Shown here piece after piece: positions 285 through 24,192 of a DNA stretch of 42,227 bases. Made by a program: the position numbers and the translations under genes. The stretch lies in the NCBI GenBank assembly GCA_001800135.1, contig MGUU01000021.1:1-42227 (forward strand), read 5' to 3'. Origin of the DNA: Elusimicrobia bacterium RIFCSPLOWO2_02_FULL_39_32 (GTDB taxonomy: Bacteria; Elusimicrobiota; Elusimicrobia; 2-02-FULL-39-32). Within the stretch, counting starts at the first letter, position 1. Each line of letters begins with the position of its first letter. The notes under the pieces are model-generated. The model saw only the letters and a program-made list of their open reading frames with translations, made no database searches and was not told the DNA's origin.

Positions 285-3200
285 TTAAGCATTAATATGG
301 ATGAGTCGGAACTCTTTCATTTCTTCTGCAATATCTCTTAAGGTTTTAAATTCTATCACCATGGTTGCGCTCATAAGCTTATAGATCTTTACCCTTATAT
401 TAAATTGCATACTCTCTTCCAATCGTAAAGGATCATCTGTAACTATCTGTACCCCTAACTCCCCTAAACCTAAACTTTTTAGCTCATTCACTACTCTATC
501 TACTACCACTCTCTTCCCTTTGGAAGCACTTAAATAGACCATCCGATCCTTTGCAGCTTGTATTAAATCTTTATCTAGTTCTTTTTCTATCAGTCTCTCT
601 ACTACTCTCTGCATCTTACCCTTGCTTACTCCATAAGCTGCTGTCAAAGCTATCTTCTCTTCCCCTCCTCTCCTTAACTCGTTTAAAATAGAACCCTCTA
701 CCATCTCTCTATTAACTGCATTCCCAAACAGCGCAGTACCATCAAATGTCTTGATCGCTCCCGGCAAATCTTCTCCTATACTTGCAAGAGAACTTATATC
801 CTTATACTCTGCTTTGGAACTCGCCCACTTGGCTAATACCGCTACTTTCCATGCTGTCTCTTCAAACTCATTGATCTCTTCCTGGCTCATCTCTATCTTA
901 TCAGATACCTCTACATCCCCTGTCCAATAGTCTTGAGAATGTTCCCCAATACTAGAAGATAATATAGGTTCAACTGGTAAATTCACTGAAACCTCATTCC
1001 TTACTATGCTCCTCATCTGATCTTCTACTGCTTTGGATTGTGCTTCACTGGGATTAGTGACCAAAGCCAAGCTAAGTCCCATGGCAAGCAGATTCAATGC
1101 TTTCTTATTCCTCTGAGAAGTTACCAGGCCTGCCTTTGCTTGAGATAGGTAATTCCTCTTTAACCTCTCTATCTTTTTAATCTCTTTCTCTGCTTTAGCT
1201 GTTTCATCTGCATTCAGATAACCTCTTAACCTCTTAAACCTCTCCTCTATCTTCTCCATCTCTTTCAGCTCTTTCCCATTGTTTTGGCCGGAGTTTAACC
1301 TAAGATTGAGACCAAAAATTTCAGTTGGCTGTAAAAAAAATAAAGAAGAATCCATCTGCAATCTTTGGGCTAGTTTCACTGTGCCATAGAGAATCAGTCC
1401 TACACCACCTAAAAGTAACAGAGAAGCTAAGATCACTTCACCCATCCCAGGGTATCCTGATACAAGCTTTGAAACAAAAACTAGTACTCCTGCCAACCCT
1501 CCTACCATGAGCCCGTACTCTGACATGGCCTGACCATCTTCATTAGAAAATAAAATACCATTCTCTTTTTCCCCACTTTGGTTTGATTCTTCTGTTCGAT
1601 CTATATCTACTTTTTTTTCAAATTCAGAATCTAATCCAACCAGCTCAAGCCATTGACCTTTACCCTTCCGCAACGCTTCTTCCATATGTTTTAAAGACTT
1701 AATGCCTTTCCAGGAAACTGGTTTAGTGATTCCTTTCACCCTTGCAATATATCGAGCAGCAAATTGTTGAAGACGGTCACGATTAACCACCTTTAATCCC
1801 ATTGATTTTGCCACTCTTTCCACATAGACCATCATGGCTGATATATCGCCTAGATTTGCAACCGCTAGATAATCCTCTTCGGAATGAATATTAGCGATCT
1901 CGGATGCCATTATATATACAATCTCTTCTTTACTACTTTTTTGAACTATATCTTTAGTCGCCTGTGCTATATTGATATGCTTTTTTACAAATGTGGATTG
2001 GATAGCATATAATTTATCGCGGTTAGGATAGTATATGCCCCCCGGCGCTATAAAAATTTCCAGCATCATTTCAATAAAATCTTCGATCAAGCTCTCCTCA
2101 GTCAATCCAACATCAATAAGACTTTCTATATCGTCTTCACTTGCATAAACGCTATCTTTCAGCCTTAACCTATCAATTGGACGTACGTCACTTTTATCCA
2201 AATAATCATGTAATTTTCTGTGATCAATATTTGGATCCAGACCTAAATATCTTCTGATCACTATCTCAGTCAAAGGTTTTATATTGTTATAGACTATAGA
2301 GTGCGCAATACTATGCAATGACTTAGACTGTTTGCTCATCCTTCTCAATAAAAATGGTAAAAGCAGTGATCCAGACCCTAAAGATATAAGAAGAATGGAA
2401 AGTCCAATCTGTAATTCCCCCAATGCACCGATTAATAAAGGAGAAACAAAAGATGCCAAAGGAGCTGTCCAAGAAGTTCCACTAGGAACTGCCATGCCGG
2501 TTGTAAAGAGTGAGGCAACAGAAAAAAACCCAAGAGCGAATTTGTTGAGTAAAGAACTGGTTTGAGGAACCTGCGCTGATACGGATTCAATATTGACTTT
2601 TTGAAGAGAAGCAGGAGTGAAACTAGTCTCGGATATTGAATCTAGATTAGAACCATGGCGATTTAGATAATTTATAATATCCTCTAATGTAGAAATAGGC
2701 AAAGCTCTGATCTCTGGTTTTAGCTGCTCTTCAATTTCTAAAGGAAGAAATTTATTTTCTTTTAACCAAGCAAGAATAAAAAGATCCAACTCTTTGCCTG
2801 GTCTTGTGTATCCATAACCAGACCTTCTTGCATTCATAATTTTATAAGCCTGTTGCACATCGTGAGTCAATTTTTCCAAATCCCCTAGGGTCATGCGTTC
2901 AAAGATTTCCGAAATTTTTCTTAATGTTTCAATTCTCACTCCATGAAGTTTAGCCAGGTTTGCATGCAATGCTTGATAAGGTATAAAACTTAAAAGAAGT
3001 TTTCGTTCAGTTTTTGGAATTGATTTACCGGATAAAAGTTCTTTGCTATATTTTTCAAGGGCTGGAACCATGGGTATTCCCCTAAATTGGTTGGGATTTA
3101 TAGAGGTAATATTTTGTATCTGAAACTTTGGATTTTTCCCAACAATCTCTATTATCCCCTCATGCGCAAGCCCTCTGCGAACAAATAGCGCATCATAAGG

Positions 3201-6200
3201 ATAGTCCTTCATAAGCTGTTGAACTATTGGGGATAAAGCTTGATCTCGAGATTGTATGTGGAGAGCAGTTTGTTTATAAAAATTATTCATCAAATCAAAA
3301 GCCAACTCTTCATTTGATACTAAATAAAGAGCGTACCGTATTTGCGAATTAAAAATCTCAGACTTTAATCCAGCTTTAAAACTTTCTAAAGGAGACTTTT
3401 CCACAACCAAATGAACCTTTCCTGGATTTTGAAATACATAGTCATATAGGGGAACTAAATGGGCAGGGACATCTTTCTTTCCAGCCTTCCACTCTTTAGA
3501 TAATAGATCAAGAGATATTGGTTTAAAACCAGATAAAAGCTTTTCTAATGATTCTTGTATCTCTGGATCATCAAGACTATCAATATTGGTTAATATGCGT
3601 GCGGCGTCTGGGAACTGGCGCAAATAAGAAGTTAAGTTCATAAAATTAGGAGGCGCTTGTTCAAGAACAATGAAAACTTTATCATGATTTTTAGCGGCTT
3701 CTTTAACTTTTTGCAAAAATGGATCTTTTGTATCTAAAACATGAAACTCAAAAGAATAGATGAGCTGGCCATGAGTTGGGTGAATCACCTGTTTAATTTC
3801 TCTTACAATAAATGGAGCAGCTCCAACCGTGCCAGCTAGCCCTATCATAAAAATAGCGCCGCCAATCAACAACCTGCGAGAGAACAAAGATGGCCGATCT
3901 TTACTTTCATATGAATCTATTTCAACCTCTCTCTCTACTGAAGAATTCTTATGGTTCCACAAATAGATAAGTCCCCAGCCAATAAGCCCTGCTAATAAAA
4001 AACTTCCGCCAATGGACAACCAAAAACTTAAATCCACATTACTTCCCGATGCTCCTGTAAGAACAAAAGAGAGCGCATACAGCCCTAACCCACTCAAAGC
4101 TAAAGAAACAGGAGTCTTAGGCTTTACATCTAAATATGAATGACGTTGTTGCTGCAATGACTGTATGAAATCAGAAATAGTAGCAGAAAGGACATAGGCC
4201 CTGCTGTTTTCTGAAGCGAACTCAAGCTGTTTAAATGTCTGGGCTGAAATAAAACCGTTTTCTTTCAGCCAGAGTAAGGTAAACATCCCCAAACGATTCA
4301 TCCATGCAGAGGGTTCTTTCTGATTGATGTCTGCATAAAAAAGACTCGAATATTTTTGAATATCATTTGTTAAACGCTCTAAATCACTTTCGCTCAAATT
4401 ACCAAATATCTTGTCAAAGAACCCAACATTCCCGCTCGTTGGCTTGAAAAGAAACTTAACGCTCTCTGACGGAAACTCTAAAAGGTAATCTTTACGAGTT
4501 AAAGAAGAATTGTTTTTCAATCCACGTTCAATGTTTTGACGATAGAGTTCTGTTCCACGATCTAAAGGTAAAGAAATAGTTGGCAAAAATATATCTTGGG
4601 ATCTGTCCCCAGCATCCACTAATTTATAAATGTGCCGATGGTAAGACCCTCGTCTAACCCCGATCCCAGAGAAAGGATTGTATTTGATTATTGCGTTTAA
4701 TAGTTTAGCATCTGTTCGATCACGCACTAGATGCATTTTATAGGTTTCTTCTCGATGCTTTTGCATTTCTTTAAAGAAAGCATCTTTGTTTCGCAAATCA
4801 TAAAGCTGTTGCCGAGCATTTTCCAATGCTCTATCAGCTTTGAGTTGAGATATAGCGGTTTCAACCGTAGCATGCTCATTGATTGAGACAATTTCTGGAT
4901 GTTCCGCTAAATATAGAAGCAAAGGATCCTGCTCCACTATAAGATTTAGATCAATTCCTGGAACTTTAGCTCGTATTCCCTGAACAATATTAATTTGCGA
5001 TGTTTGCGGCCAATAAACCGTCCTTAAGAAAATATCCAATTCATTCTTTAGGTTCGGATCATCTAAGTTACTTGAACTTTCAATCTTAGCAGCCAATGCT
5101 GGATTAAGGTATCGGACCCAATTTAAATTAGGGGGGGCAGTCTCGTGAAAGGAATAGACTCTCTTATGACCACGCCTCAATTCTTCCAAAACATTTATGA
5201 ACTGACTAGAAAACTCTGGAATATGAACTTCAAAGGACCAAAGGATACGGCCCTTTTTAACAGGATCAGGGTCTAAAGGAATAGTTGAATTCGCCTTGGC
5301 TAAATTCGAAAAGATTAACATCAATCCTAAAACCACCCCAGCAGCCATCGAATAACGGTTGCGTTTAAATTTGACATGGTCCGCTTCCTCAGCTTCCTCT
5401 TTTTTCATTACGAGCAAAATTTGTCCAAAGAGCTTTACTGACAGAAAAACAACCGCGCCTAAGGACAAAACCGGGCCGGTTACAAAATCTAATAAAGCCG
5501 ATGCATCCCCCGCCGCGCTCATTAAAAGAAAAGAAAGAGCGGCTAATCCAAGAAATTTGGCTGTTCCAATATCAGACTGACCTCTCTCATCCCCCAACAT
5601 TGATTGTTCATTTTCTTTCTGAAGAACTTCTTGAACATTGCGGCTAGGCGGGGGAAGTGTTTCTTCTTGCGATCCATTGATATTCTTACCATTCATTCTG
5701 CTAAACTCTTCCGGAGTCATATATCCAGACTCCATCAGCCAGATAATCGTATTTCTAGAATAATCTGATTTTGTTTGGATAGGGTGCTGTTGCATTATGC
5801 GACTTAATCCAGCTAATTTTTCAATGCTATCAACCCGCATGGCAATTTTATTTAAAGTTGTTATATCTATATTTTCACGGTCATTTTCATCCAATGCTCT
5901 CAACAATAAATGCGATGCAATTGCGGAGATTAATTGTCTTCTGGTAAATGTTCGGCGCGATATCAATCCCGCCATTTGAAGTAAAGCTTCCACTCTAATT
6001 AAATTGTCCAAATCAAAGATAAACACAGAACGATTTGGAGCTAAAAATTCTTTTGTAACAGTACGATTGGAAAATTCGCTTTTTAGAATTTCAAACGGCA
6101 GGACATGTCCTATCCCACGAATGATCAATACATTGGCTTCAGGATTAGCTTCGGCAAAAAGCTTAACCTGTTTAATGAATCTATTATCTCGGTTGAACAT

Positions 6201-9200
6201 CTCTTGACCAATGAGACGTATCAGTTCTTCATACCATTGAACCGCTTTTAGGATATCCCCTTGATACACTAAATCAAGTATCGCCTGATATCCCGCTTGC
6301 ATTTCGCTAGGTGAGATTACTTCATCCATTTCAGGTTCTTCGCCTCTAATTTCCTTTCCAGACTCATGGATGGCTGTCATAAGAGTAGCTATTGAATCAT
6401 CAGAAAAAAATGGGATTCCTAGTTTTCTAATAAAATCTAAAAATTCTTGAGGAGTTCTCTTACCTTGCGAAATATCATTGTAGGGCTCATCAAATAAACC
6501 CGTTTCTTCAATGAAAATAACATCTGCAACTTGTATTTTTGCTTTTAGAATCTCTAAATATTTATGCCGAGTCCCATGCCTATCTTGGAGAATATCAATT
6601 CTCCCAAGAGAAATGGGATTGTGAGCTGTATCAGCAATTCCCAATCCACTACCTGATTCATCCGTTACTCTATCATCGCTGACAGAAGAATTCTGTACAA
6701 AATTTACTGTTAAATCTTGCAGGGAAACGATGAATTCTTCTAATCCTGGTATTTTGGTAAATTTTTTATGATTAACCTCAAACAGACGGTGATTCTCTTC
6801 ATGCTGATAAAATATCTTTTGCATTCCTTTAGGGATAAACTGCATAAGGCGGGAATTCAGATAAATTTTACCATCCCTAACCTCGCAAGGGATAAAGAAA
6901 TCTCTGTAAATCTTTTTTATTGTGAAGAGTAGATGATGAATGTGATCTTGAGACAGGAGAGATTTTTGTTCTTGTGGAAGGTTCCTAAATTCCGGGATCA
7001 ATTTGCTTTCATCTGTAGGGCCTTTGTTAAGTCCTGCTCGAATTGCAGCGATCAAGATTACAAGCGACTGGGTAAAATGAAAACCACCAGCTAAAAAGAA
7101 TGCTAAAATTTCAGGGAAATTGCCCATGTGCTGAATCCCAAAATGCGCCGCCGCCGCTAAAACAACACCTAAAACCACGCCTACTGCCAACGAGTTTATG
7201 AAAGATTTGTTATCCGCCTTATTTTGTTCCTGAGCCAGCAGCGCCGCAGCTTGCGCTAACTGTAAAGCGATTTTTTTACTCCCTAGTACTGTGGCAAAAT
7301 CAGGACCATCCATGATGATCACCGGTTCATTTTTTTTATCATTCAGATGATAAACAGACCCTCCTTGAGACACAATCTTTAAGCCGTTTCTTCTTGCAAA
7401 ATCCTCAAAAGGGATTTGATCAGCGCCAACATAAAATATACGCCCCCATTTACTATCCTTTTCCCCTTTAACAACCCCGGTTTTGTAACCTGCAACAGCC
7501 ATTTGCAGGAATCCCCCTTTATCAGAATAAGGCACCTGATATTCGGGAGAGAGTTCAAAATGTTTGCGCGCATCAGCCACAATTTTTTGCGCCTCATCCA
7601 TAAGCTGGGATGCGCTCAACATTCGTTTTTGAATAAGCTTTTCTTTAAGTTGTTCTGTTTCTCTCAAATAAATCGCTGGATCTGAACTCTCCAGAGGAAA
7701 ATCTTTCTCTAAACTTACCAATATTAAAAGCAGATGCATTGCTGGATTTGGATTTGTTCTAAACTCATCCGCGTATTTCCACAGGCTTGATTTATAATAT
7801 TCATTAGACAGCTGAATCAATGCAGCCATGTCCACATGTAATTTAGCTGCCATTAATTGAATTTCTTCTCTAAACTCACGGATCGCTAACATCACAGGAA
7901 TATCTAGCCCTTGGGTCAATGTTTCTCTCAAATCCTCTAAATCGTATGTTTGCGCGTATTGTTGGACCTGTTGACGATGGTCTGCAAACTGAACTAGACG
8001 GGATAAGGAACTATGCAATTCAATCAATACGCGTCGGAAATTATTTTCATCTTGTTTGGAAGTTCCGCGAGGAATCAACATTCTCGCAGCTTCAAAATGA
8101 TCTCCCAATATCTTCCTATAAGCTATATTTTCTAAGCGCCTGACAGCCGAATATAATTCAAATCCCAGAAGTTTGCCAAGATACATTTGATATACAAGTG
8201 AAAGTTGAACCGCGGTGCTTAAGCTGGAATCTTTTTCCAGCTCTTCTAATTTTTTCAAAAAATTTCTGGCAGTTGATATTTCAACGGTATCTATTTCCGG
8301 CGCGCGCAGGAACTCCAAAGCGAATTCCAAATCATTACATGTTTGAAGTCCAATAAGCAGCAACATAAGACTTTCCCCGTCATGCATCCTTTGAATAAGA
8401 TTAAAAACAAGTTCTGCGGCTTGAGTTCTGCCTTTGTTCACATCCCCGGAACCATCCATGACCATGGCCTTAAATTTCCGTCCTTTAATCAGCCATGTTG
8501 TGGCAGTTCGAGTTCTTAATCGCTCGACTTCTTCAATAGAAAAAATCTGATCTCCGATTGTATAAGAACCGTTCTTTTGAAGCAGCGCTGAAATTTCTCT
8601 GATTGTTTTATTCTCTTTTGAAAGAACCTGATAGTCCTTGGGTTCAAATATCGCTATAGTGATTGGGGGAGATATTGTGAGATTGTGGGATAGACGATAG
8701 AGAAGCTGAATAAGAATATAGGCTGCCGAATAATAGGACAAAAGCGTTAATAAATGATAAGGACTGGCTGAAAAAAAGTAAGCCAACCCTGCCATTGTAA
8801 GCGCGATACTATAGATTATACGAGTTAGAAAAGTTGTTAAAATTTTTAAACCTGGATTGACCCGAATTTGTTTTCCCATTTTTCTGTATCTTAAAGTCAA
8901 AAATGTATCAAGTCCTTTATCGTAAAAATAGAGCGCTCCTAAAAATACAGGGGTTCCTATTATAAGCGCTTTAGTCTGTTCCATAGGAATACCCATTAAA
9001 GACAGAATCCCAACAGTGACGGCTATTGAAAAAATTACAATAATCCCTCCATAAATCAATGAATTTGAAAATGGCGCGAAATATTTTTCATACCAAACCG
9101 ATCCATTCATTACGCTCATGAGAGAACGGCGAATATCCCCGTTTTCTAAAGCATGCAAACTAGCTCTCTCAAGGTTTTGTATCTCCCGCCCGCGCTCTTC

Positions 9201-12200
9201 TGTTTCTCCCATCGCTTCCTCAGTTGCTAAAGACGGTTCCGGTTCCGCAGCAATTTCGTTTTTTTCAACCAAAGGCGCTTCAGGCGCAGAGCGTTCAGCA
9301 ACGGCAGGGGTCGTTGGTTCTATCATCTCTTCCTTACCTTCAAAAGAATAATCATAAAGTGTCTGTAGGATCTCAGCAATCAAACTAAAACGGGCAAAAG
9401 AATTTGTAATTTCTTCCCGGTTCCTATTTCTCAAATAAATAAACATCCTGAACAGTGAATCAGTTAACGTAATTTGATCCAAAATTTGTGAAAATTCGTC
9501 TTTTTGCAGACTACGATGTCTTCCTGAATGCCTTCCCAAAGATTGGCCGATCAAAGATACAATATCTTTCTCATCCAAATTCTTTTTATGATAAGTAGAT
9601 ATTAAATTTTTAGCAATTGTTTCCGCATCCTGGCTTTTTATTTTAAACAGCCTGATTAGAAGCCCGGCTAAACCTACAATTTCATCAGATGTTGGGTATT
9701 CTTCATTCTGTGACGGTTCGAGTTCGGAAATTTTCAATTTCTGATTTATCTGTTCAAAAGCTTTTTTAAACGCGTGTTGGGAATTTAGATTCAGTTTCCT
9801 TTGAATATCTCCAATAAAATCACCGCATCCTTTAACCAAAACAGCGCGGGTTACAGAAAACGTTGCTAATTCAATTACGGACTCAGCATTCAATTTCTCT
9901 GAAAATTTACTATTCAAAACAAGCGCAAGGTCTAATACAGCTCCATCCGCGTTCCCCTCCATCGCTTTAGGCAGAACGGATTCTGTTTCTAAAACAATCC
10001 AAAAAACATCTGCAAATGAAAAATTCAATTGACTGCCAAATACCCCTAAAATTTTATTTGCAAGAACTGCCATTGCCGGAGGTAGTTGAACATCGGCATT
10101 CCCTGAACTATCTTGAGATAAAATCGAAAGCGCATGATCTCTAGCCTGCTGAGGAGTCATTCCTTTTTTATCAACAAAGTATCTACTCTGAACTTCAACT
10201 AGCTTATTTAAAGTAATCTGGTTCAAAATTCGTTCAAGATATTCAACCGCGCTTGCAAAATCTAATCCCAATACTTTCATAATCCGTTCTAATGCCGGAA
10301 CCATCCCTCTGGTCCAGTCCATTTGAAAAACAATTTCTTTAGCATGCTCTAAAGCATCACCATTTTTAACATGAAACTTCTCGCGCAGATGTTCTGCTAA
10401 GGCAGTTGCCCTCTCGCCATTTTCTTTGCTTACTACTAATTGAACAATGGCTTTTGATTCTTTAGCTGCGTGATCCCTGCCAATTTTATATTTGTTCTGT
10501 AAAATCCCCATTAAACTATTAATTGAATAAACAGGATCAACCGATATAATCCATTGCTCTAGCTGCCTTTGTATCCCATTAGAAACAGGCTCAGCGCCAA
10601 CCAACTTAAAATAACTGTACAAATAACTTAAGTGTTCATTGTCAGGTTGATCATTCTTAAATTCGTCTTCAGCAATCTCTCTTACATGCGAAGTCACTCT
10701 AGCCCAATCAATGGTGAAACCCTCCACAAACCTACTCATCTTTTGTTTTGTCTCAGCCGGATACTGTGAATGTTCCACAAAATCATTTAAGGTTTTGTTT
10801 TCTTTAAAAGCAATCTGTTCCAACTCCATGATAAGTTCTAACACGCTCAATGGGGATTCATCTTCCATAGATTCCAAACTCTGTATTAGGTTTGCCATTT
10901 CTGCAGCAGACCGAGATTTCTGAAGCGGGATCAACAAAGAACCTTCAACGCGTTCCAAATAATGTTCATCATCTTCGATAAATTCCAGCAGGCCGTCCAA
11001 TCTCTGCGGTGTAATCTCTTGTGGCGTTGAACTGAACAATAAATCCTTCAATTCATTAACTTGCTGGCGGTTCCGTATCAATTCATTATGATCCGCGTTG
11101 ATCTCTCCAATATGCCTTAGAGCGTCCAGTCTTGTGTTCCCCTTACCATCCGCCATTTCTGCTTTAATTTTAAAAGCAAGAAGACGAACTATTTTTTTCT
11201 CCGGATCAAAACTAAAATATAACCGCCTATCCCCATTTTTAATCCGAAAGACTCTTAACAGATCTTTCCCTTGAGCTAAACCTGTCATCAATATTTTTGG
11301 CTGGGCAAGCCTTCGGCTTAAATTGGGCAGCATGGCGTTTGCTATATTAGCCTGCAAGTTCGGGTAACGAGAAATATCCTCATAGAATTCTTTACTAAAG
11401 ATAATCTTATATCCATGCCATTGAGGGTGATTCACTGCCGGTATTTTAGAACCCCTTGATTTTGTACCATCCTTTTTTACTTCAACTTCATCAATGGTTG
11501 CTGAAACAAAACTCATGCGATTCTTGCTTTCGTGGGTCCAATTCCAGAAAATATGGTAAAGGGTATGCACAATCCCATAGACAATGATGCCTATGAGCAT
11601 GATAGTTAAGAAATCCGAAGTAGTCCCCATGCCAATGTGACTTCCTATGATATTTCTAAAATCTTCTAAACTGTTTGGAAACAGACCAAACGCCAATACA
11701 AATGAAGCTCCTGAAGAAAAAATCCAAGCCAATCCATGCGCAATCCAAGGACCCGCCCTCACATCCTTGCCAATCTTTGTATGCTGCTCTTTAAATAAGG
11801 AAGTAATGAAAACGCCAACTATGCTATCAACCACCACGAATGCAAATGTCCAAAGGGGAATATTTTGAGGGGTTTCAAAACTTGCAAAAGAAAAATAGGT
11901 TTCCCCAAGACCAAAGTTATAAACTATAAGCAAAATTGCAGAGGTCACAAATAAAGATAAAGCCCCTTTAAGCAGCGCGAGTCCCAAACTCTCCCAAGGC
12001 GGCGCAATGCCGATCTCATAAACATCCACCAGCCATTTGGGCGTTCCTTCAGGCAGCTTAAACAAAACCATGCGATCAGAATCTTTCAGATTCTGCTGGC
12101 TAGAATCACTATCTGATTCATCTTGAGCCGTAGGGGTCTTATTCAATGTTCGACTTCTTAAGCTAAGGGAAGCGGCTAAATGTTCATTTAATATCGCAGA

Positions 12201-15200
12201 AAGCAGTTGTAAAGTAAGGCGCTTCTCTGAACCATCAATCATCTTTATTTTAACGCCAGTTTTGAGGCCTTCCAAAATACCACCTTCTTTAGATTCTTTT
12301 CTAATTAAATCCTCAATAGATAAAACTCCATCGGTGCCATATTTATCAATAAGAGATTCTGCTTTTAAGGCCATATCTACTTCATCAATTACATTCCTTT
12401 TAAAAAGAAAAGACCACGCTGAATCGGCTAAATTCTTATTCTTTTTGTATTTTCTTTCAAAATAGATCTTATGAACATATCGTCTTAAAGAATTAGAAAA
12501 TATCTTAAACTCTTTTAGTATGTGATCGTGCAGGGTGTGCACGACATGGGGAGCGCATGCCCATGCATGCTCATTAATCCACTTATTATTATGCTTATAA
12601 AGTAATAAAATCTCCTTTAGCTCTCTTTGGGTTAATCTGTCTAAGTATCGGAGCACAAAAGGAGAATCCTCTACTTGTTTCCAACCCTTCTCAACTGCTA
12701 GTTTTCCTAACGATAAAATATAAGCCAGCCTTACTTCAGATTCTTTTTTCCCTCCGAAATCTCTTAATTCAAGATGGATGCGGCTCATTTCAAACTCTAG
12801 CTGCAAAGCTTCATCCTCTGCAGAACCCTTTTCTATAAATATAATGTAATCACTGAAATAGATATGATGAGTTCCTAGAATTCCTCTTCCTTTGAGGAAT
12901 GCCGCAATCTCATCCTTTGGATCGCTCAAATCATATGTGACGACAAAATATTCATCGCCATCATCATCCTTGCCTGCGCTTTTAATATTGAGGGAAGATT
13001 TGGCTAAAGAACTTAATTTGAAACTATCTCTCTCTAAAAAAAACGGCATTAAAGCAGGCATGATAACTTCACGATAAAGTGCAATTGAACCCACCGCTAG
13101 TGTTAAGAACCCAATAAATTCCATGATTAATTCGCCCGCAGCTCCCATTAAGAGAGGGGAAAGAAGAAAAAAAGTTAAGATCGGGGGAGGAAATTTTTTA
13201 AATATAAAGCGGAAATCTTGTAAAGAAACGATAAATTCTTCTAACCCGGGGATTTTGGAAAGTTTGGGATGCGCTTTTTCAAACGCGGCGCGATTCTTTT
13301 CAAACGTGCGGTGGTTCTCTTCGTGCTGATAAAAAATCCTCTGCATGCCTTTATGGATAAATTGCATCAGGCGGGGATTCACATGAATTTGACCGTCTTG
13401 GAATTGGCAGGGAGTGAGGAGTAAATTGAGATTTTTTTGAGAAGGCGGGAGGTTCCTAAATTCCGCAATCAGTTTGCTTTCATCCGGCTCGCCCTTGTTG
13501 AGCCCCGCGCGAACCGCCGCGATCAAAATCACAAGCGAATGGGTAAAATAGAATCCGCCGAACATAAAGAAAACTGCGATTTCGATCCACTGCCCATCAT
13601 GCGGCACAATATGAGCGAGTGACGCCGTGAGGAACCCTAATGATAATCCCGTTAATAACGAATTCCATGCTGATTTTGAGGAACGATCACTATTTGGCAG
13701 CGACAAGATATCTTGAGGCGCATTGGGACTTACATAAACTGTAGTGAGATACTTTGCATAGCTGCTTCCTTTAAACATTTCCAACAAACCAGGAACATGA
13801 AGTGCGCCTACTATAAAAATAACAGGAAGACCTGATTCTAAACCTTTTTTTGAAATTTCGATCATATTTTCAAAGAAAAATTTATTTCTCCATAAAACCA
13901 TGACATCATCAAAAAAACGTTGATTATTAGAAAGCAATACCTTGTTTAATTCATCTTCATCAAGCTTTAAAAAAGGTGGTAAACTTCGGTTTAACTCAAC
14001 ACCAAAAATACGCGCATACTCTTTACACAATCCAGACCACGCTTCAACATCCCTCCAAATAGATGTCGAAATCAAATCATCTAAAGATAACTGTCGCAAA
14101 AGATAACTATTCAAAGTCAGATATAATTCCCAAACACTTCCATTTCGGGCGATAACGTCTTTCAGTTTTATCCAACATCTGCCTCCTAAAGTTTTGGAAT
14201 GATGCCCAAGGTGGGATATAAAATTGACCTGAATGTCTTTTATTTCCTCAATAACTTTCTCAAAATCCTCTGACAACTTGCCTTCGGCAATCAAATGCAA
14301 ACGTTCGATATTTAAAATAAGAAATAATAGAATTGCAAAAAGATGCACAGGCGCATATTCTATGCCAAAGATAAATCCATCTTGATAATCCTTGGGCAAT
14401 CCTTCAAGACCTAAAACGATTTTTTTCCCTTTAGCAAGAGGCAAAAGCTGATCCTTGAGACTTCGATCTTTTAAGTGATTTTCTGCAACGAGATAGATTC
14501 CGGAAAACTCTGAATGGGCACTCCCTGGCTCAATCTGATTGCTGACTCCTTCAACTTCATTGCGAATTGAATCGCCCATTTGGTCAGATATTGAAACTTC
14601 GGAATCATCGCCATTTAAAGCTGCAATGATGGTTATTGGTGCGTTGACCGCATGTTTTAGCTGCCGAGACGCGCGAATCTGCACCTTTTGAACATTTGCA
14701 AAAATTTTTCTAGAAGCCTTTTGGCTTTTCTGCTGGAGAGGTTTGCCGAGCGCCGCGGCGCGGGCGAGAACGGAAGGTTTTTCTTTTTTGCTTGCAAATG
14801 GGATAACTTTTCCATTACTACCCATAGGGACTGTTTCTCCATATTCAAATCCATCCCCTAAACCAGTATTCTCTAAATCTGATCCTAATCCTTTTAGTTC
14901 TTCTGTTTTAGAAGTTGCAAAACGTATTCCATCTACCACACCTGTAAAAAGATCCCCAGTTTCTTCTTCGTCCTTTAATAAAGCTCTCATGCCCCCTTTG
15001 CCATTGGCAGCATCCAATACTACCACTCCATTTAAAATTCCAAGAACAGTTTTTCCTTTTAACGATTCTGTATTAGCTAAAGCTAGCGGAGGAGCCAATG
15101 TAACTTTTTCCGGCAAGAACATCTTTTCTAAAGGTAATAAATCTCTCTTAAAGGCATTCAGCGGATGGTAGTCTTTTTGAATATCGCTCGCATTCATCTG

Positions 15201-17225
15201 CGGACGAATCGTAATAAAAGAGATTCCTTTTTTCTCTAATAGCTCCTCTACTCCCTTGCTGTGGTATCCCCCAGCTACTAGAATAGAAATGGCGCTGCCT
15301 AAATTATCTCTAGCGCTCTCCTCATTCCCTGCTTTTTCCATCCGTGCAATTAACTTATTAACAAAAATTTGATTTCTCTCATGCGATAGTTTATTGAAAC
15401 GAGAAACATTCTTTAATATCTCTGAAATTGAATGGTCTAATGGCTGGATTGTTTCTTCTAAGGCGATTTTTGCATCTAATTTTTTTGACTGGACTGTTTG
15501 TTCTATATTTACACTTGAATCTAATCCTTTTAACCGTTCTCTGATCTTTATAATTTCATTTTCTCTTTTATCGTACTCCTCCCACTCTTCTGGACTCAGC
15601 TTAAAATCTACAGCTTTCTTCAACAACCTATAATCTTTATCAATTAATATTAACTCTTCAATATTCTCTCTAACTTCTTTAGTGCTTCTATTTTTTCTTC
15701 CCCCTACATTTCCTTTAGCTGCTCCATCTTCTCCATTCAACACATTCCCCGTATTTTTTTTCTCTCCCACATCCCCTTTAGTTCCTCTAGCTGCAACGCT
15801 TATCCATGCGCCTTCCTCTACTTTCTTCACTTCTACAAATAGTTTTTCCCTTTCAATCCCCTCAACCCCTGCCACATATTTCATATATTTTTCTAATTCT
15901 GGAGTGATCTTTAGTTTCGCTTTCTCGCATCTTCGTTTAATACCAGCGTAAAATTCTCCATACCCAATCTTGCCTAACCTATAGGCGATACTCTCCTTCA
16001 ACAGCTCTGTTAATTCTTGCTGATTCAATTTGTTTGAAAGGTGTTCTAATAATTTTTTCTGTTCCTCACTCACCTTCTTAAAATCAATTGACTTCTCTAA
16101 TCTGTAAGCGCTAAGATACCGATCAATATTTAATAATCCTGAACCTCTTAAATTCCAATTTCCTCTTTGGTTTAATCCTTGATGAATTTCTGTATCTGAG
16201 CTTCTAATCCCATTTAAATATTCCAGCCATTCTCCAAGTTTTATCTCCCCTTGCTCATACTTCTCCTTGTTTCTATCCAACTCTTTAAGCTCTGCGCTAT
16301 AATTCTTCTCCTTTAAATCGCCCAAAGTCCTACTAATTTCCAATACCCAATCTCTACCCTGTTTCTCATCCTTTAATGTATCCTTAAAACTCTTTACTTG
16401 CTCCAGATATTTCTCTTGCTCCTCCACTCCAAAGAACTCCACATTCCCAGGTATCTCATAGGTTTTAGGATCGTTTCCCGATGAAACAGCGGTTTTTGCT
16501 AATCCTGCCACTTCTACTCCTGTAATTAACCCCTTTTTCATTAAGTAGCCTGCCAACCCATTTAAAGTTTCTTTATTCGGATAATTCCTGTATTGATCCA
16601 GCCCGCGAATTCTTCCCTCAGCCCCTTCTACTCCAACTATTCTTGCTCCCAAAGTTGTTAACTCTTTTAACAGCAAAGCTATATTTTTCTGTACCCCATA
16701 AATGCCATGCGCGTCTTGGATCAAAAATACCAAGGGGCTGCTCTCACTCTTCAGTTTCCCTTCAACAACTTGCAAATGATTCCCTTTCTTTAAATAAACT
16801 CTTTCAATATTCCCATAAGATTCAATTTGAGATAAGAACTCTGAAGGAATGCCAATAAAATTTTTATTTTTTGAAGATTTAGGCTGGGTTTGAATTTTAG
16901 TTAGAACCTGTTGCAGAGCTTCAGGAGAAATTTGAGAATTAAATGAGCCAAGAAAGGATGCTGGCAAAGATAACCCTGAGAGAGAGGCTAACTCAAGATG
17001 GGATTGAGAATTTTTATACTGCTCAGTGGATGTTCCTCTAAGCCCACGAGCGCCCACAGTTTCTCTAGACCCTAATTCCTCTACAGCTTTTTTCCGTTCG
17101 TTCCAAAGATTAGCCTGGGCAAAGGGAGCGCTGACTGTTGTAAATAAAAAGCTGATTACAACTAACCCTGCGGTTATTTGTAACCAGTTCCTATTTCTTT
17201 TCTCTATCCAAAATTGAATTGTCAT
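285..17225 (-). CDS. Giant exported membrane protein with five Tiki/ChaN-like and two HEENH modules
   Basis: This single frame of 5,646 residues has no interruption. Residues 1-38 form a signal peptide (basic RNRNW, hydrophobic core, AQA-type end). Five modules carry the Tiki/ChaN/EreA/TraB signature. First and last histidines are H173/H655, H917/H1143, H3550/H3707, H4001/H4196 and H4495/H4688, and each module has a glutamate 23-27 residues after the first histidine. HEENH motifs lie at 1301-1305 and 3475-3479, each after a conserved membrane segment. Further membrane helices lie near 1350-1400, 1740-1900, 2715-2850, 3880-3980, 4390-4470, 4890-4965 and 5235-5285. A RelE-like stretch lies near 1932-2025 and a pilin-like one near 5229. 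Long helical regions fill the rest. The start ATG has no clear ribosome binding site but is followed at once by the signal peptide. Giant genes are known in Omnitrophota; the cellular role here is unknown. An envelope-exposed hydrolase array is my inference. Confidence 0.9.
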   Translation of the reverse strand: MTIQFWIEKRNRNWLQITAGLVVISFLFTTVSAPFAQANLWNERKKAVEELGSRETVGARGLRGTSTEQYKNSQSHLELASLSGLSLPASFLGSFNSQISPEALQQVLTKIQTQPKSSKNKNFIGIPSEFLSQIESYGNIERVYLKKGNHLQVVEGKLKSESSPLVFLIQDAHGIYGVQKNIALLLKELTTLGARIVGVEGAEGRIRGLDQYRNYPNKETLNGLAGYLMKKGLITGVEVAGLAKTAVSSGNDPKTYEIPGNVEFFGVEEQEKYLEQVKSFKDTLKDEKQGRDWVLEISRTLGDLKEKNYSAELKELDRNKEKYEQGEIKLGEWLEYLNGIRSSDTEIHQGLNQRGNWNLRGSGLLNIDRYLSAYRLEKSIDFKKVSEEQKKLLEHLSNKLNQQELTELLKESIAYRLGKIGYGEFYAGIKRRCEKAKLKITPELEKYMKYVAGVEGIEREKLFVEVKKVEEGAWISVAARGTKGDVGEKKNTGNVLNGEDGAAKGNVGGRKNRSTKEVRENIEELILIDKDYRLLKKAVDFKLSPEEWEEYDKRENEIIKIRERLKGLDSSVNIEQTVQSKKLDAKIALEETIQPLDHSISEILKNVSRFNKLSHERNQIFVNKLIARMEKAGNEESARDNLGSAISILVAGGYHSKGVEELLEKKGISFITIRPQMNASDIQKDYHPLNAFKRDLLPLEKMFLPEKVTLAPPLALANTESLKGKTVLGILNGVVVLDAANGKGGMRALLKDEEETGDLFTGVVDGIRFATSKTEELKGLGSDLENTGLGDGFEYGETVPMGSNGKVIPFASKKEKPSVLARAAALGKPLQQKSQKASRKIFANVQKVQIRASRQLKHAVNAPITIIAALNGDDSEVSISDQMGDSIRNEVEGVSNQIEPGSAHSEFSGIYLVAENHLKDRSLKDQLLPLAKGKKIVLGLEGLPKDYQDGFIFGIEYAPVHLFAILLFLILNIERLHLIAEGKLSEDFEKVIEEIKDIQVNFISHLGHHSKTLGGRCWIKLKDVIARNGSVWELYLTLNSYLLRQLSLDDLISTSIWRDVEAWSGLCKEYARIFGVELNRSLPPFLKLDEDELNKVLLSNNQRFFDDVMVLWRNKFFFENMIEISKKGLESGLPVIFIVGALHVPGLLEMFKGSSYAKYLTTVYVSPNAPQDILSLPNSDRSSKSAWNSLLTGLSLGFLTASLAHIVPHDGQWIEIAVFFMFGGFYFTHSLVILIAAVRAGLNKGEPDESKLIAEFRNLPPSQKNLNLLLTPCQFQDGQIHVNPRLMQFIHKGMQRIFYQHEENHRTFEKNRAAFEKAHPKLSKIPGLEEFIVSLQDFRFIFKKFPPPILTFFLLSPLLMGAAGELIMEFIGFLTLAVGSIALYREVIMPALMPFFLERDSFKLSSLAKSSLNIKSAGKDDDGDEYFVVTYDLSDPKDEIAAFLKGRGILGTHHIYFSDYIIFIEKGSAEDEALQLEFEMSRIHLELRDFGGKKESEVRLAYILSLGKLAVEKGWKQVEDSPFVLRYLDRLTQRELKEILLLYKHNNKWINEHAWACAPHVVHTLHDHILKEFKIFSNSLRRYVHKIYFERKYKKNKNLADSAWSFLFKRNVIDEVDMALKAESLIDKYGTDGVLSIEDLIRKESKEGGILEGLKTGVKIKMIDGSEKRLTLQLLSAILNEHLAASLSLRSRTLNKTPTAQDESDSDSSQQNLKDSDRMVLFKLPEGTPKWLVDVYEIGIAPPWESLGLALLKGALSLFVTSAILLIVYNFGLGETYFSFASFETPQNIPLWTFAFVVVDSIVGVFITSLFKEQHTKIGKDVRAGPWIAHGLAWIFSSGASFVLAFGLFPNSLEDFRNIIGSHIGMGTTSDFLTIMLIGIIVYGIVHTLYHIFWNWTHESKNRMSFVSATIDEVEVKKDGTKSRGSKIPAVNHPQWHGYKIIFSKEFYEDISRYPNLQANIANAMLPNLSRRLAQPKILMTGLAQGKDLLRVFRIKNGDRRLYFSFDPEKKIVRLLAFKIKAEMADGKGNTRLDALRHIGEINADHNELIRNRQQVNELKDLLFSSTPQEITPQRLDGLLEFIEDDEHYLERVEGSLLIPLQKSRSAAEMANLIQSLESMEDESPLSVLELIMELEQIAFKENKTLNDFVEHSQYPAETKQKMSRFVEGFTIDWARVTSHVREIAEDEFKNDQPDNEHLSYLYSYFKLVGAEPVSNGIQRQLEQWIISVDPVYSINSLMGILQNKYKIGRDHAAKESKAIVQLVVSKENGERATALAEHLREKFHVKNGDALEHAKEIVFQMDWTRGMVPALERIMKVLGLDFASAVEYLERILNQITLNKLVEVQSRYFVDKKGMTPQQARDHALSILSQDSSGNADVQLPPAMAVLANKILGVFGSQLNFSFADVFWIVLETESVLPKAMEGNADGAVLDLALVLNSKFSEKLNAESVIELATFSVTRAVLVKGCGDFIGDIQRKLNLNSQHAFKKAFEQINQKLKISELEPSQNEEYPTSDEIVGLAGLLIRLFKIKSQDAETIAKNLISTYHKKNLDEKDIVSLIGQSLGRHSGRHRSLQKDEFSQILDQITLTDSLFRMFIYLRNRNREEITNSFARFSLIAEILQTLYDYSFEGKEEMIEPTTPAVAERSAPEAPLVEKNEIAAEPEPSLATEEAMGETEERGREIQNLERASLHALENGDIRRSLMSVMNGSVWYEKYFAPFSNSLIYGGIIVIFSIAVTVGILSLMGIPMEQTKALIIGTPVFLGALYFYDKGLDTFLTLRYRKMGKQIRVNPGLKILTTFLTRIIYSIALTMAGLAYFFSASPYHLLTLLSYYSAAYILIQLLYRLSHNLTISPPITIAIFEPKDYQVLSKENKTIREISALLQKNGSYTIGDQIFSIEEVERLRTRTATTWLIKGRKFKAMVMDGSGDVNKGRTQAAELVFNLIQRMHDGESLMLLLIGLQTCNDLEFALEFLRAPEIDTVEISTARNFLKKLEELEKDSSLSTAVQLSLVYQMYLGKLLGFELYSAVRRLENIAYRKILGDHFEAARMLIPRGTSKQDENNFRRVLIELHSSLSRLVQFADHRQQVQQYAQTYDLEDLRETLTQGLDIPVMLAIREFREEIQLMAAKLHVDMAALIQLSNEYYKSSLWKYADEFRTNPNPAMHLLLILVSLEKDFPLESSDPAIYLRETEQLKEKLIQKRMLSASQLMDEAQKIVADARKHFELSPEYQVPYSDKGGFLQMAVAGYKTGVVKGEKDSKWGRIFYVGADQIPFEDFARRNGLKIVSQGGSVYHLNDKKNEPVIIMDGPDFATVLGSKKIALQLAQAAALLAQEQNKADNKSFINSLAVGVVLGVVLAAAAHFGIQHMGNFPEILAFFLAGGFHFTQSLVILIAAIRAGLNKGPTDESKLIPEFRNLPQEQKSLLSQDHIHHLLFTIKKIYRDFFIPCEVRDGKIYLNSRLMQFIPKGMQKIFYQHEENHRLFEVNHKKFTKIPGLEEFIVSLQDLTVNFVQNSSVSDDRVTDESGSGLGIADTAHNPISLGRIDILQDRHGTRHKYLEILKAKIQVADVIFIEETGLFDEPYNDISQGKRTPQEFLDFIRKLGIPFFSDDSIATLMTAIHESGKEIRGEEPEMDEVISPSEMQAGYQAILDLVYQGDILKAVQWYEELIRLIGQEMFNRDNRFIKQVKLFAEANPEANVLIIRGIGHVLPFEILKSEFSNRTVTKEFLAPNRSVFIFDLDNLIRVEALLQMAGLISRRTFTRRQLISAIASHLLLRALDENDRENIDITTLNKIAMRVDSIEKLAGLSRIMQQHPIQTKSDYSRNTIIWLMESGYMTPEEFSRMNGKNINGSQEETLPPPSRNVQEVLQKENEQSMLGDERGQSDIGTAKFLGLAALSFLLMSAAGDASALLDFVTGPVLSLGAVVFLSVKLFGQILLVMKKEEAEEADHVKFKRNRYSMAAGVVLGLMLIFSNLAKANSTIPLDPDPVKKGRILWSFEVHIPEFSSQFINVLEELRRGHKRVYSFHETAPPNLNWVRYLNPALAAKIESSSNLDDPNLKNELDIFLRTVYWPQTSQINIVQGIRAKVPGIDLNLIVEQDPLLLYLAEHPEIVSINEHATVETAISQLKADRALENARQQLYDLRNKDAFFKEMQKHREETYKMHLVRDRTDAKLLNAIIKYNPFSGIGVRRGSYHRHIYKLVDAGDRSQDIFLPTISLPLDRGTELYRQNIERGLKNNSSLTRKDYLLEFPSESVKFLFKPTSGNVGFFDKIFGNLSESDLERLTNDIQKYSSLFYADINQKEPSAWMNRLGMFTLLWLKENGFISAQTFKQLEFASENSRAYVLSATISDFIQSLQQQRHSYLDVKPKTPVSLALSGLGLYALSFVLTGASGSNVDLSFWLSIGGSFLLAGLIGWGLIYLWNHKNSSVEREVEIDSYESKDRPSLFSRRLLIGGAIFMIGLAGTVGAAPFIVREIKQVIHPTHGQLIYSFEFHVLDTKDPFLQKVKEAAKNHDKVFIVLEQAPPNFMNLTSYLRQFPDAARILTNIDSLDDPEIQESLEKLLSGFKPISLDLLSKEWKAGKKDVPAHLVPLYDYVFQNPGKVHLVVEKSPLESFKAGLKSEIFNSQIRYALYLVSNEELAFDLMNNFYKQTALHIQSRDQALSPIVQQLMKDYPYDALFVRRGLAHEGIIEIVGKNPKFQIQNITSINPNQFRGIPMVPALEKYSKELLSGKSIPKTERKLLLSFIPYQALHANLAKLHGVRIETLRKISEIFERMTLGDLEKLTHDVQQAYKIMNARRSGYGYTRPGKELDLFILAWLKENKFLPLEIEEQLKPEIRALPISTLEDIINYLNRHGSNLDSISETSFTPASLQKVNIESVSAQVPQTSSLLNKFALGFFSVASLFTTGMAVPSGTSWTAPLASFVSPLLIGALGELQIGLSILLISLGSGSLLLPFLLRRMSKQSKSLHSIAHSIVYNNIKPLTEIVIRRYLGLDPNIDHRKLHDYLDKSDVRPIDRLRLKDSVYASEDDIESLIDVGLTEESLIEDFIEMMLEIFIAPGGIYYPNRDKLYAIQSTFVKKHINIAQATKDIVQKSSKEEIVYIMASEIANIHSEEDYLAVANLGDISAMMVYVERVAKSMGLKVVNRDRLQQFAARYIARVKGITKPVSWKGIKSLKHMEEALRKGKGQWLELVGLDSEFEKKVDIDRTEESNQSGEKENGILFSNEDGQAMSEYGLMVGGLAGVLVFVSKLVSGYPGMGEVILASLLLLGGVGLILYGTVKLAQRLQMDSSLFFLQPTEIFGLNLRLNSGQNNGKELKEMEKIEERFKRLRGYLNADETAKAEKEIKKIERLKRNYLSQAKAGLVTSQRNKKALNLLAMGLSLALVTNPSEAQSKAVEDQMRSIVRNEVSVNLPVEPILSSSIGEHSQDYWTGDVEVSDKIEMSQEEINEFEETAWKVAVLAKWASSKAEYKDISSLASIGEDLPGAIKTFDGTALFGNAVNREMVEGSILNELRRGGEEKIALTAAYGVSKGKMQRVVERLIEKELDKDLIQAAKDRMVYLSASKGKRVVVDRVVNELKSLGLGELGVQIVTDDPLRLEESMQFNIRVKIYKLMSATMVIEFKTLRDIAEEMKEFRLIHINA
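1371..1553 (-). other. Flp-pilin-like transmembrane segment (residues ~5225-5285)
   Basis: EDGQAMSEYGLMVGG followed by two hydrophobic stretches resembles the start of Flp/Fap-type pilins, which have a small residue, G-Q, then xxEYxL and a long hydrophobic helix. A lesser version, DERGQSDIG, precedes another membrane segment near residue 3880. It may be only a membrane anchor. Confidence 0.35.
3111..3893 (-). other. Signal-like segment plus Tiki/ChaN-like module 5 (residues ~4445-4705)
   Basis: SRRLLIGG, a hydrophobic core and VGAAP form an internal signal-like stretch. It precedes SFEFHVLD (H4495), VLEQAPPN (glutamate 27 residues later), LVVEKSP and VRRGLAHEG (H4688). It is a tandem duplicate of module 4, linker included. 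Confidence 0.6.
4581..5378 (-). other. Signal-like segment plus Tiki/ChaN-like module 4 (residues ~3950-4215)
   Basis: A signal-peptide-like stretch (KRNRYS, hydrophobic core, NLAKANS) leads into SFEVHIPE (H4001). SFHETAPPN follows with its glutamate 27 residues on, then LIVEQDP, and GVRRGSYHR (H4196). It is the nearest relative of module 5; the two share SFExH, ETAPP/EQAPP, NLDDP/SLDDP and VRRG. Confidence 0.6.
6066..6608 (-). other. Tiki/ChaN-like module 3 (residues ~3540-3720)
   Basis: The module contains LQDRHG (H3550), VIFIEETG with the glutamate 23 residues later, IPFFSDDS as the second acidic motif, and IRGIGHVLP (H3707). It is the shortest copy and closest in layout to stand-alone ChaN/Tiki proteins. 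Confidence 0.6.
6726..7193 (-). other. HEENH module, copy 2 (residues ~3345-3500)
   Basis: This copy is clearly homologous to the one near residue 1301. Shared blocks are the membrane segment GGFHFTQSLVILIAAIRAG, the RLMQFIPKGMQ block, YQHEENHR and KIPGLEEFIVSLQD. The glutamate pair lies 17-18 residues after the second histidine instead of 24-25 because of a seven-residue deletion. It sits directly before Tiki-like module 3. Confidence 0.55.
11151..11432 (-). other. RelE/ParE-like segment in the giant protein (residues ~1932-2025)
   Basis: The stretch IIFSKEFYEDISRYP, then KDLLRVFRIKNGDRRLYFSF and KKIVRLLAFK, follows the pattern of a RelE-fold toxin: N-terminal helices, a strand ending in R-x-R-I, RxxY/F, then a last strand. 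Catalytic residues cannot be assigned by eye. It may be a captured toxin fold or a chance resemblance. Confidence 0.3.
13191..13688 (-). other. HEENH module, copy 1 (residues ~1180-1345)
   Basis: A membrane-spanning start (FFMFGGFYFTHSLVILIAAV) is followed by RAGLNKGEPDESKL, NPRLMQFIHKGMQ and IFYQHEENHR. HEENH fits the HExxH zinc-binding motif. PGLEEF places two glutamates 24 and 25 residues after the second histidine, where gluzincins have their third ligand. A second copy lies more than 2,000 residues away. Peptidase activity is inferred from the motif only. Confidence 0.5.
13716..14513 (-). other. Tiki/ChaN-like module 2 (residues ~905-1170)
   Basis: The module contains VAENHL (H917), LGLEGL with the glutamate 24 residues later, FGIEYAP as the second acidic motif, and IVGALHVPG (H1143). 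ENH followed by E resembles the GExH start of ChaN. It is compact and lies directly before the first HEENH module. Confidence 0.6.
15156..16733 (-). other. Tiki/ChaN-like module 1 (residues ~165-690)
   Basis: The module opens with IQDAHG (H173), has GVEGAEG with the conserved glutamate at about 200 and FFGVEE as a second acidic site. It closes with AGGYHSKG (H655). In the Tiki/ChaN/EreA superfamily such His and Glu positions bind metal or form the active site. Module 1 is the longest copy: about 400 charged, helical residues separate the acidic sites from the final GxxH. Confidence 0.6.
17112..17225 (-). other. N-terminal signal peptide of the giant protein
   Basis: Residues 1-38 have a basic n-region (EKRNRNW), a hydrophobic stretch (LVVISFLFTTV) and a small-residue end (SAPFAQA before N). 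This is a typical Sec signal with cleavage likely after AQA. It places the N-terminal part of the giant protein outside the cytoplasmic membrane. Confidence 0.85.
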
Positions 17226-23841: not shown

Positions 23842-24192
23842 TGGTGGAGGTGACGGGAATTGCACCCGTGTCCAAGAATTTGACATCAAAGCCACTACAG
23901 GTTTAGTTTAGAGTTGTTCTCGTAAACAGGTTGTCTCTAAACTGAACCACCTGTTCACAAGCCCTGTTATTTTCTGGCCCTACTCCGACAAGGCAAGCAG
24001 AGTAGAACGAGCCTGCTTTCGACGTTCCATCCCTAATAGCAGGTGTCTTAAGGGGAACGCTACTGCTAATTAAGCAGCAAGTGCCAATTGTTCGTTGGCT
24101 TGTTTGTTTTGGCCGATTAGTAACGGAGCCTTCGGCCAACTCCGACCTGCGACTTAGATGAACAAGATCCCTGTCGAACCTAATTCACCCCC
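23842..24192 (-). ncRNA. ssrA: Transfer-messenger RNA
   Basis: tmRNA rescues stalled ribosomes and tags the unfinished protein. The 5' end GGGGGTG pairs with CACCTCC before the encoded ACCA, giving the alanyl acceptor stem. The T-arm GACACGGGTGCAATTCCCGTC is canonical apart from length, and the 5' side has GGTTCGACAGGGAT. The reading frame runs from GGC at 24112-24114 to TAA at 24070-24072 and encodes GQNKQANEQLALAA, ending in the usual LALAA degradation signal. The base string before the resume codon (TAATC) resembles E. coli TAGTC. Length is 351, normal for one-piece tmRNA. Open frames crossing it are not genes. Confidence 0.97.

What the first reader, a model, noticed from the sequence alone, without database searches (positions are those of the whole stretch)
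285..17225. Five Tiki/ChaN/EreA-like metal-hydrolase modules in one giant protein
Five regions share an ordered set of residues: [DE]xH (QDAH, AENH, QDRH, FEVH, FEFH), a glutamate 23-27 residues later, a second acidic motif (GVEE, GIEY, SDDS, IVEQ, VVEK), then GxxH (GGYH, GALH, GIGH, GSYH, GLAH). This is the layout of the Tiki/ChaN/EreA/TraB superfamily, whose members are usually single-domain. All five keep the putative ligands despite very low overall similarity, which argues for selection on activity. A five-fold array on a membrane-bound 5,646-residue chain is, as far as I know, undescribed.
Basis: partly seen in the sequence, partly recalled or inferred. Interest (0 to 1): 0.85.

Follow-up and report, generated by a model that had tools for sequence, protein, structure and literature searches.

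The report
Tiki-type enzyme heads giant bacterial proteins
A 5,646-residue bacterial protein carries a chain of very diverged copies of one hydrolase-type fold, and the first copy is the fixed front piece of a giant-protein family that fills about 15% of this groundwater bacterium's genome; no database family that I searched describes it.

Summary
The ORF is real and intact. Ordered [DE]xH–Glu–Arg-Asn/Asp–GxxH sets lie at all five places (0 of 500 shuffles reach five). Its 'second acidic motif' holds only in M1 and M5: wrong residue in M4, not conserved in M2 or M3.
M1 is the strongest case. In 53 relatives His173, Glu200, Arg617 and GGxH never vary. Its profile aligns to ChaN, motif on motif, above all 100 shuffles. 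A family member passes Pfam's ChaN cut-off. The likeliest fold matches of a mediocre model are the TIKI-fold proteins HopBA1, RRSP and BcR135, though none is significant. M4/M5 form a second family; M3 joins them, M2 joins M1.
The larger finding is that M1 sits once, directly behind a signal peptide, in 21 giant ORFs (about 375 kb, 15%) of this genome and in 62 of 295 phylum genomes. The five-fold array is local: M2–M4 change even between congeners.
Most likely exported 2His/2acid hydrolases. Catalysis, metal use and substrate are untested. 'Usually single-domain' is wrong: RRSP is a module of a giant MARTX toxin.

The parts
285..17225 (-). giant ORF, 5,646 aa, uninterrupted
   Evidence: 5,489-aa counterpart in congener G001:C14
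17109..17225 (-). signal peptide (res. 1-39, ...SAPFAQA|N), followed by the shared WxERRKA motif
   Evidence: hydropathy and AxA site; the same N-terminus in 15 other M1-headed giant ORFs of this genome; hydrophobic stretch before M1 in 20 distant members
15126..16763 (-). M1 (res. 155-700): Tiki/ChaN-like module with a helical insert; D171-x-H173, E200, G266-x-E268, R617, GGxH655
   Evidence: 33-member A1; 53-member conservation; hhalign to ChaN; AF2 and Foldseek
13671..14525 (-). M2 (res. 901-1185): divergent relative of M1; H917, E941, R1113-N, GALH1143
   Evidence: profile to M1 C-half; ~30% relatives
13212..13607 (-). first copy of an internal ~130-aa repeat with HEENH (res. 1207-1338)
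   Evidence: 60% identical to res. 3364-3505
6711..7136 (-). second copy of the HEENH repeat (res. 3364-3505)
6021..6638 (-). M3 (res. 3530-3735): D3548-x-H3550, E3573, R3679-D, GIGH3707
   Evidence: hhalign to M4/M5 family E 2e-5; relatives in G004 and G028
4458..5255 (-). M4 (res. 3991-4256): E3999-x-H4001, E4028, E4117, R4168-D, GSYH4196
   Evidence: 25% identical to M5, E 6e-17; family A2
2967..3773 (-). M5 (res. 4485-4753): E4493-x-H4495, E4522, E4609, R4660-D, GLAH4688
   Evidence: family A2; hhalign to ChaN; AF2 model; 87% in congener, dN/dS 0.22
288..890 (-). C-terminal domain (res. 5446-5646) shared by at least 8 of the 17 giant ORFs read

Best explanation
The protein is an exported giant protein of a groundwater bacterium (closest records labelled Elusimicrobia). 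It is headed by M1, a divergent Tiki/ChaN-superfamily hydrolase module, and four further, fast-changing modules of the same superfamily (M2; M3-M5) lie along the chain. How it most likely works: the chain is exported through its signal peptide. In each module two His and two acids at the ends of parallel strands, with an Arg behind, activate water to cut a peptide or ester bond, as proposed for TIKI and erythromycin esterase enzymes. M1 is the constant activity that every giant protein of the family needs, most plausibly peptide-bond cleavage in maturing the chain itself or opening an envelope target. M2-M5 are add-on copies that widen or multiply the activity. Shown here: the homology, the motifs, their constancy, and the single N-terminal place of M1. 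Inferred: export, catalysis, peptide as substrate, and the role.
For: His173, Gln179, Glu200, Gly266, Arg617, GGxH and Pro675 are identical in 53 of 53 M1 sequences from many families of the phylum, although most other positions vary. The same ordered residues are invariant in the 11-member M4/M5 family at 23-34% identity to M5 apart from its 88% congener copy. Order and spacing match the catalytic set proven by mutation in RRSP: Glu-x-His, Glu +28, Arg, His +29 (PMC6254334). hhalign core M1 vs ChaN scores 36.3 against at most 23.3 in 100 shuffles; M4/M5 vs ChaN 32.8 against at most 26.0; motifs in register. PF04187 gathering cut-off passed by an M1-bearing ORF in G001. AF2 models put the residues at strand ends. 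Best-probability Foldseek hits of M1 are HopBA1 0.69, RRSP 0.33, then BcR135 0.15. One M1 per giant ORF, always N-terminal in the 16 read; signal-peptide-like N-termini. dN/dS 0.22-0.33 for M1 and M5.
Against: No Foldseek match is significant (all E > 0.3 for M1); the M5 model (4 sequences, pLDDT 65) matches nothing sensible. Models are only moderate (pLDDT 65-68). The window's own M1 passes no Pfam cut-off; the PDB sequence search finds no relative. hhalign probabilities are modest (61% and 31%), and M1 vs M4/M5 directly is weak (score 23.4 vs shuffled maximum 20.7). M1 and M3 have Asp where RRSP has Glu. M2's first acid is not conserved in relatives. Other giant proteins of the family carry cytoplasmic-type enzymes (PPDK, radical SAM, ABC1 kinase), which fits poorly with simple export of the whole chain. 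Nothing shows processing or cleavage.
Confidence: 0.6

Rival explanations
1. The modules have the Tiki/ChaN fold but bind rather than cut: each is a ligand- or haem-binding unit, as ChaN is annotated, and the giant protein is a surface binding or uptake scaffold.
For: The closest Pfam family by profile is PF04187, annotated as haem-binding uptake. Arrays of binding modules are common in surface giants (general knowledge).
Against: The strict constancy of the His/acid/Arg set (53 of 53) matches the catalytic set of RRSP and the Ere enzymes (PMC6254334). M1 is single-copy and N-terminal, not part of an array, in 14 of the 16 M1-headed ORFs read.
Confidence: 0.2
2. M1 is a self-processing peptidase: it cuts the exported giant chain into working pieces, as the cysteine protease domain does in MARTX toxins, and this explains why every giant protein has exactly one.
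For: One M1 at the N-terminus of giants whose middles differ and carry unrelated enzyme domains. RRSP and Tiki show that this fold can cut peptide bonds (PMC6254334).
Against: No cut sites, cleaved products or conserved linker found. M2-M5 would be redundant.
Confidence: 0.25
3. M1 is a non-catalytic export or anchoring header, and the array reflects random duplication in a fast-changing giant gene.
For: M1 closely follows the signal peptide in all giants read. M2-M4 are gained and lost between congeners.
Against: A mere anchor would not be expected to keep exactly the superfamily's active-site residues in 53 of 53 sequences. M4/M5-family copies also keep them at 23-34% identity.
Confidence: 0.12
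4. The shared motifs are coincidence and the five regions are not one fold.
For: [DE]xH followed by Glu at that spacing alone is as common as chance (10 observed, 9.0 expected). Foldseek E-values are not significant.
Against: Full-pattern shuffle test, profile alignments, and conservation concentrated on the motif residues.
Confidence: 0.05

Closest known systems
ChaN / Cofac_haem_bdg family (Pfam PF04187)
   Same: motifs GE-x-H, E, WN-E-x-M, GxGH align with DxH/ExH, E, R-N/D, GxxH of M1 and M4/M5; one M1-bearing ORF of the congener passes its cut-off
   Different: the window's modules do not pass the cut-off; M1 has a long helical insert; stand-alone ~300-aa ChaN proteins of this phylum are not giants
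RRSP, the Ras/Rap1 endopeptidase module of MARTX toxins (PMC6254334)
   Same: 2His/2Glu plus Arg order and spacing; a TIKI-fold peptidase embedded in a giant secreted chain; second most probable Foldseek match of M1
   Different: one TIKI copy, internal effector position, its own membrane-localisation lobe; here N-terminal and, in this chain, five copies; no significant sequence match
Erythromycin esterase family (EreA/BcR135)
   Same: His-Glu hydrolase of the same superfamily; BcR135 (3b55) is among the Foldseek matches of M1
   Different: no Pfam Ere match; not giant proteins
HopBA1, type III effector of the TIKI superfamily
   Same: most probable fold match of M1 (prob 0.69, 117 columns, 4.5 A)
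   Different: small protein (217 residues in the solved chain); E-value 1.2 only
Giant proteins of Elusimicrobiota/Omnitrophota (PMC11573180, PMC10066038, PMC12057145)
   Same: giant genes in these phyla are reported, with many membrane segments and a proposed role in host or prey contact
   Different: no shared header domain or Tiki-type module is described in the passages I could read; the Elusimicrobiota giants got no COG assignment (PMC11573180)

Membership tests
TIKI/ChaN/Ere/TraB superfamily | 2His/2acid set in order: [E/D]-x-His, Glu ~23-28 later, GxxHis | tested here: met
   all five modules; M1 H, E, H 53/53, first acid Asp 52/53; M4/M5 11/11; M2's first acid not kept in relatives
TIKI/ChaN/Ere/TraB superfamily | conserved basic residue 28-38 before the last His (RRSP Arg4001) | tested here: met
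   R617 53/53; R in 11/11 of M4/M5; present in M2 and M3
TIKI/ChaN/Ere/TraB superfamily | profile similarity to an accepted member family | tested here: met
   hhalign with ChaN above 100 of 100 shuffles for M1 core and M4/M5; M3 and M2 only through M4/M5 and M1
TIKI/ChaN/Ere/TraB superfamily | parallel beta-sheet core with the residues at strand ends | tested here: inconclusive
   predicted topology fits; M1's most probable fold matches are TIKI-fold proteins but with E > 1; M5 gives no match
ChaN (PF04187) | score over the curated cut-off | tested here: not met
   window modules below it; an M1-bearing ORF in G001 passes (31.2 vs 27.7 bits)
TraB/PrgY/GumN (PF01963) | match to the family model | tested here: not met
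   no match in the window protein or in the genome
Erythromycin esterase (PF05139) | match to the family model | tested here: not met
   absent from the Pfam results
TIKI/ChaN/Ere/TraB superfamily | hydrolase activity; metal dependence | not testable with these tools
   needs purified protein; the superfamily itself is mixed on metal (PMC6254334)
MARTX toxin | RTX repeats and cysteine protease domain | tested here: not met
   no Pfam match of that kind in the window protein

The most novel reading that the evidence does not exclude
A previously undescribed Tiki-superfamily family (M1) is the obligatory N-terminal enzyme of a phylum-wide class of giant exported proteins. It spans 21 genes and about 15% of this genome, with ORFs up to 13,472 codons, and acts as a constant processing or effector peptidase in front of freely exchanged enzyme cargo (M48 peptidase, ABC1 kinase, PPDK, radical SAM, SLOG, further Tiki modules): a modular giant-protein system without a known counterpart.
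Probability: 0.35. Interest if true: 0.88.

Novelty: new variant of a known kind. Interest (0 to 1): 0.72.

Why it matters
Giant genes of Elusimicrobiota and Omnitrophota are known but functionally dark: the Elusimicrobiota ones got no COG assignment in a broad survey (PMC11573180), and few domains are recognised in the Omnitrophota ones (PMC10066038). A constant header domain with a recognisable, invariant active site gives a handle on a whole class of them. M1 alone (about 400-550 residues) can be expressed, assayed and solved, and its two catalytic His can be removed to test what the giants need it for. It also makes the class countable by one profile, and adds a new family and a multi-copy architecture to the TIKI superfamily, whose known members include a Wnt protease, antibiotic esterases, ChaN and toxin modules.

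Tried and rejected
MLD (PF11647) search of the genome: nothing, and the controls were silent too, so uninformative. Pfam and NCBIfam on the window protein and on M1: no family over cut-off. PDB sequence search with both profiles: only chance hits. Foldseek of the M5 model: P-loop proteins at TM below 0.3, meaningless. A1 and A2 were too diverse for the search for related loci; viral contigs hold no relative of M1. Idea that each M4/M5 copy has its own upstream membrane segment: true for M4, M5, the congener's M5 and one other copy, false for the rest. Idea that the C-terminus was swapped in from a paralogue: dropped, because the congener's DNA continues the match (88-89%) outside its open frame, so the frame differs there. 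TraB/GumN membership: rejected. The third fold search was not used. Known TIKI-fold toxins were not fetched as a yardstick; ChaN was used instead.

Full report
What is there. The window is a complete 42-kb contig of a 2.52-Mb draft genome. Its closest annotated relatives are groundwater MAGs whose records are titled 'Elusimicrobia bacterium'; I have no other taxonomic evidence. window:285-17225(-) is one open frame of 5,646 codons. A congener's assembly holds a mostly colinear 5,489-codon counterpart, 72-84% identical over most of its length, so the gene is unlikely to be an assembly artefact.

The five modules. The quoted motifs are all present. The ordered pattern of [DE]xH, Glu, R-N/D and GxxH occurs five times, once per module, against a mean of 0.25 and a maximum of 2 in 500 block-shuffled copies. 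That test is partly post hoc: a first version with narrower spacing limits missed M3-M5, and the second match starts at a chance [DE]xH. The first two motifs alone are no commoner than chance (10 observed, 9.0 expected), so the first-stage motif list by itself would have been weak. Homology is what decides.

M1 (residues 155-700). Thirty-three relatives, 15 of them from giants of this genome and the rest from other genomes, align, and 20 more from distant families were added. Across all 53, His173, Gln179, Glu200, Gly266, Arg617, Gly652-Gly653, His655 and Pro675 never change; Asp171 is Asp in 52 and Glu in 1; residue 268 is Glu in 47 and Asp in 6. These motif residues make up nearly all of the most conserved positions. 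A long helical insert separates strand 3 from the Arg helix.

M4 and M5. They are 25% identical (E 6e-17) and belong to an 11-member family in which E-x-H, E, E, R and GxxH are invariant. M3 joins this family through its C-terminal half (hhalign E 2e-5). Its N-terminal D-x-H and E are kept in relatives from two other genomes. M2 joins M1 through its C-terminal half (hhalign E 1e-4). Its relatives keep His, the LEG/IEG glutamate, WRN and GxxH, but not the first acid or the GIEY acid.

Is it the Tiki/ChaN superfamily? For this superfamily, PMC6254334 names a 2His/2Glu set (Glu3900-x-His3902, Glu3930, His4030 in RRSP, each essential by mutation) and a conserved basic residue (Arg4001). The spacings are 28 residues from first His to Glu and 29 from Arg to last His. 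The modules here give 27/38 (M1), 24/30 (M2), 23/28 (M3), 27/28 (M4) and 27/28 (M5). I built a ChaN profile from 18 stand-alone proteins of the same phylum. Core M1 aligns to it with score 36.3 (100 shuffles: maximum 23.3) and M4/M5 with 32.8 (maximum 26.0); in both, the motifs fall on the ChaN motifs. An M1-bearing giant ORF of the congener passes the curated PF04187 cut-off (31.2 vs 27.7 bits). AF2 models (pLDDT 65-68) put each motif at the end of a strand in the expected order. In Foldseek the most probable M1 matches are HopBA1 (0.69) and RRSP (0.33), with BcR135 third among listed probabilities (0.15); all are TIKI-fold proteins by PMC6254334, but with E-values above 1. M5 finds nothing. 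I take superfamily membership as likely for M1, M4 and M5, probable for M3 and plausible for M2.

The larger finding. In this genome M1 occurs in 21 open frames of 2,033 to 13,472 codons, whose stop-to-stop lengths sum to about 125,000 codons or 375 kb, some 15% of the assembly (my sum). In the 16 M1-headed giants read it occurs once, at the N-terminus, behind a signal-peptide-like segment and a WxER motif. The same place behind a hydrophobic stretch holds for the 20 distant members. It is found in 62 of 295 phylum genomes, with frames up to 11,814 codons among the other genomes listed there. Pfam and NCBIfam hold no family for it. The middles of the giants differ: M48 peptidase, ABC1 kinase, radical SAM with B12-binding, PPDK/PEP-utilising domains, SLOG, HEAT repeats and NAGPA are recognised in some. 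A C-terminal domain is shared by at least eight.

How local is the array? Of the M1-headed giants read in this genome, only two carry more than M1 of this kind: the window protein (M1, M2, M3, M4, M5) and the C5 giant (M1 plus four M4/M5-type); the congener counterpart has M1, M2 and two M4/M5-type. A third giant has one M4/M5-type module and no M1. Between the congeners M1 and M5 are 87% identical with dN/dS 0.33 and 0.22, while M2 is 29% and M3/M4 do not match. The congener's last module lies in a stretch 65% identical to one of the C5 giant. So the header is fixed and the further modules are gained, lost or exchanged. Purifying selection is shown for M1 and M5 only.

How it most likely works. 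Inference: an exported chain whose modules hydrolyse peptide or ester bonds with the His/acid pairs, M1 being the constant activity. I cannot tell processing of the chain itself from action on an outside target. The presence of cytoplasm-type enzymes behind a signal peptide in sister giants is unexplained; internal membrane segments could place them back inside. 'Metal hydrolase' is not established, because the superfamily is mixed (Tiki metal-dependent, RRSP not; PMC6254334).

Known or new. Giant genes in these phyla are described (PMC11573180, PMC10066038, PMC12057145); the last cites a preprint on giant genes that is not held here (West-Roberts et al. 2023). None of the passages I could read reports a common header domain or a Tiki-type module. 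I rate it a new variant of a known kind: a known fold in a new family and a new architecture.

Noticed in passing
window:13212-13607 and 6711-7136 (-): A ~130-aa unit with HEENH (HExxH-like) occurs twice in the window protein (60% identical) and twice, with HEKNH/HEQNH, in the C5 giant; possibly a zincin-like module.
   Followed up: partly
L035, L038, L044, L046, L048, L049: Sister giants carry cytoplasmic-type enzyme domains (PPDK with PEP-utiliser domains, ABC1 kinase, radical SAM with B12-binding, SLOG, M48) behind a signal peptide; topology is a puzzle.
   Followed up: partly
window:288-890 (-): A C-terminal domain shared by at least 8 of 17 giants; the gene's last 1.2 kb (window:282-1453) is 90.6% identical in DNA to that of the C5 giant.
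   Followed up: partly
L051:4-1072: The congener's counterpart leaves the frame near its C-terminus: matching DNA (88-89%) continues outside the open frame.
   Followed up: no
window:20296-23714 (-): HpnH-like radical SAM and squalene-hopene cyclase-like genes side by side, next to tmRNA (23842-24192): likely hopanoid synthesis (read from the translations, no search run).
   Followed up: no
window:17438-18235 (+): ABC-2-type permease-like gene divergent from the giant gene with a 212-bp gap; no partner of the giant gene recognised nearby (read from the translation, no search run).
   Followed up: no
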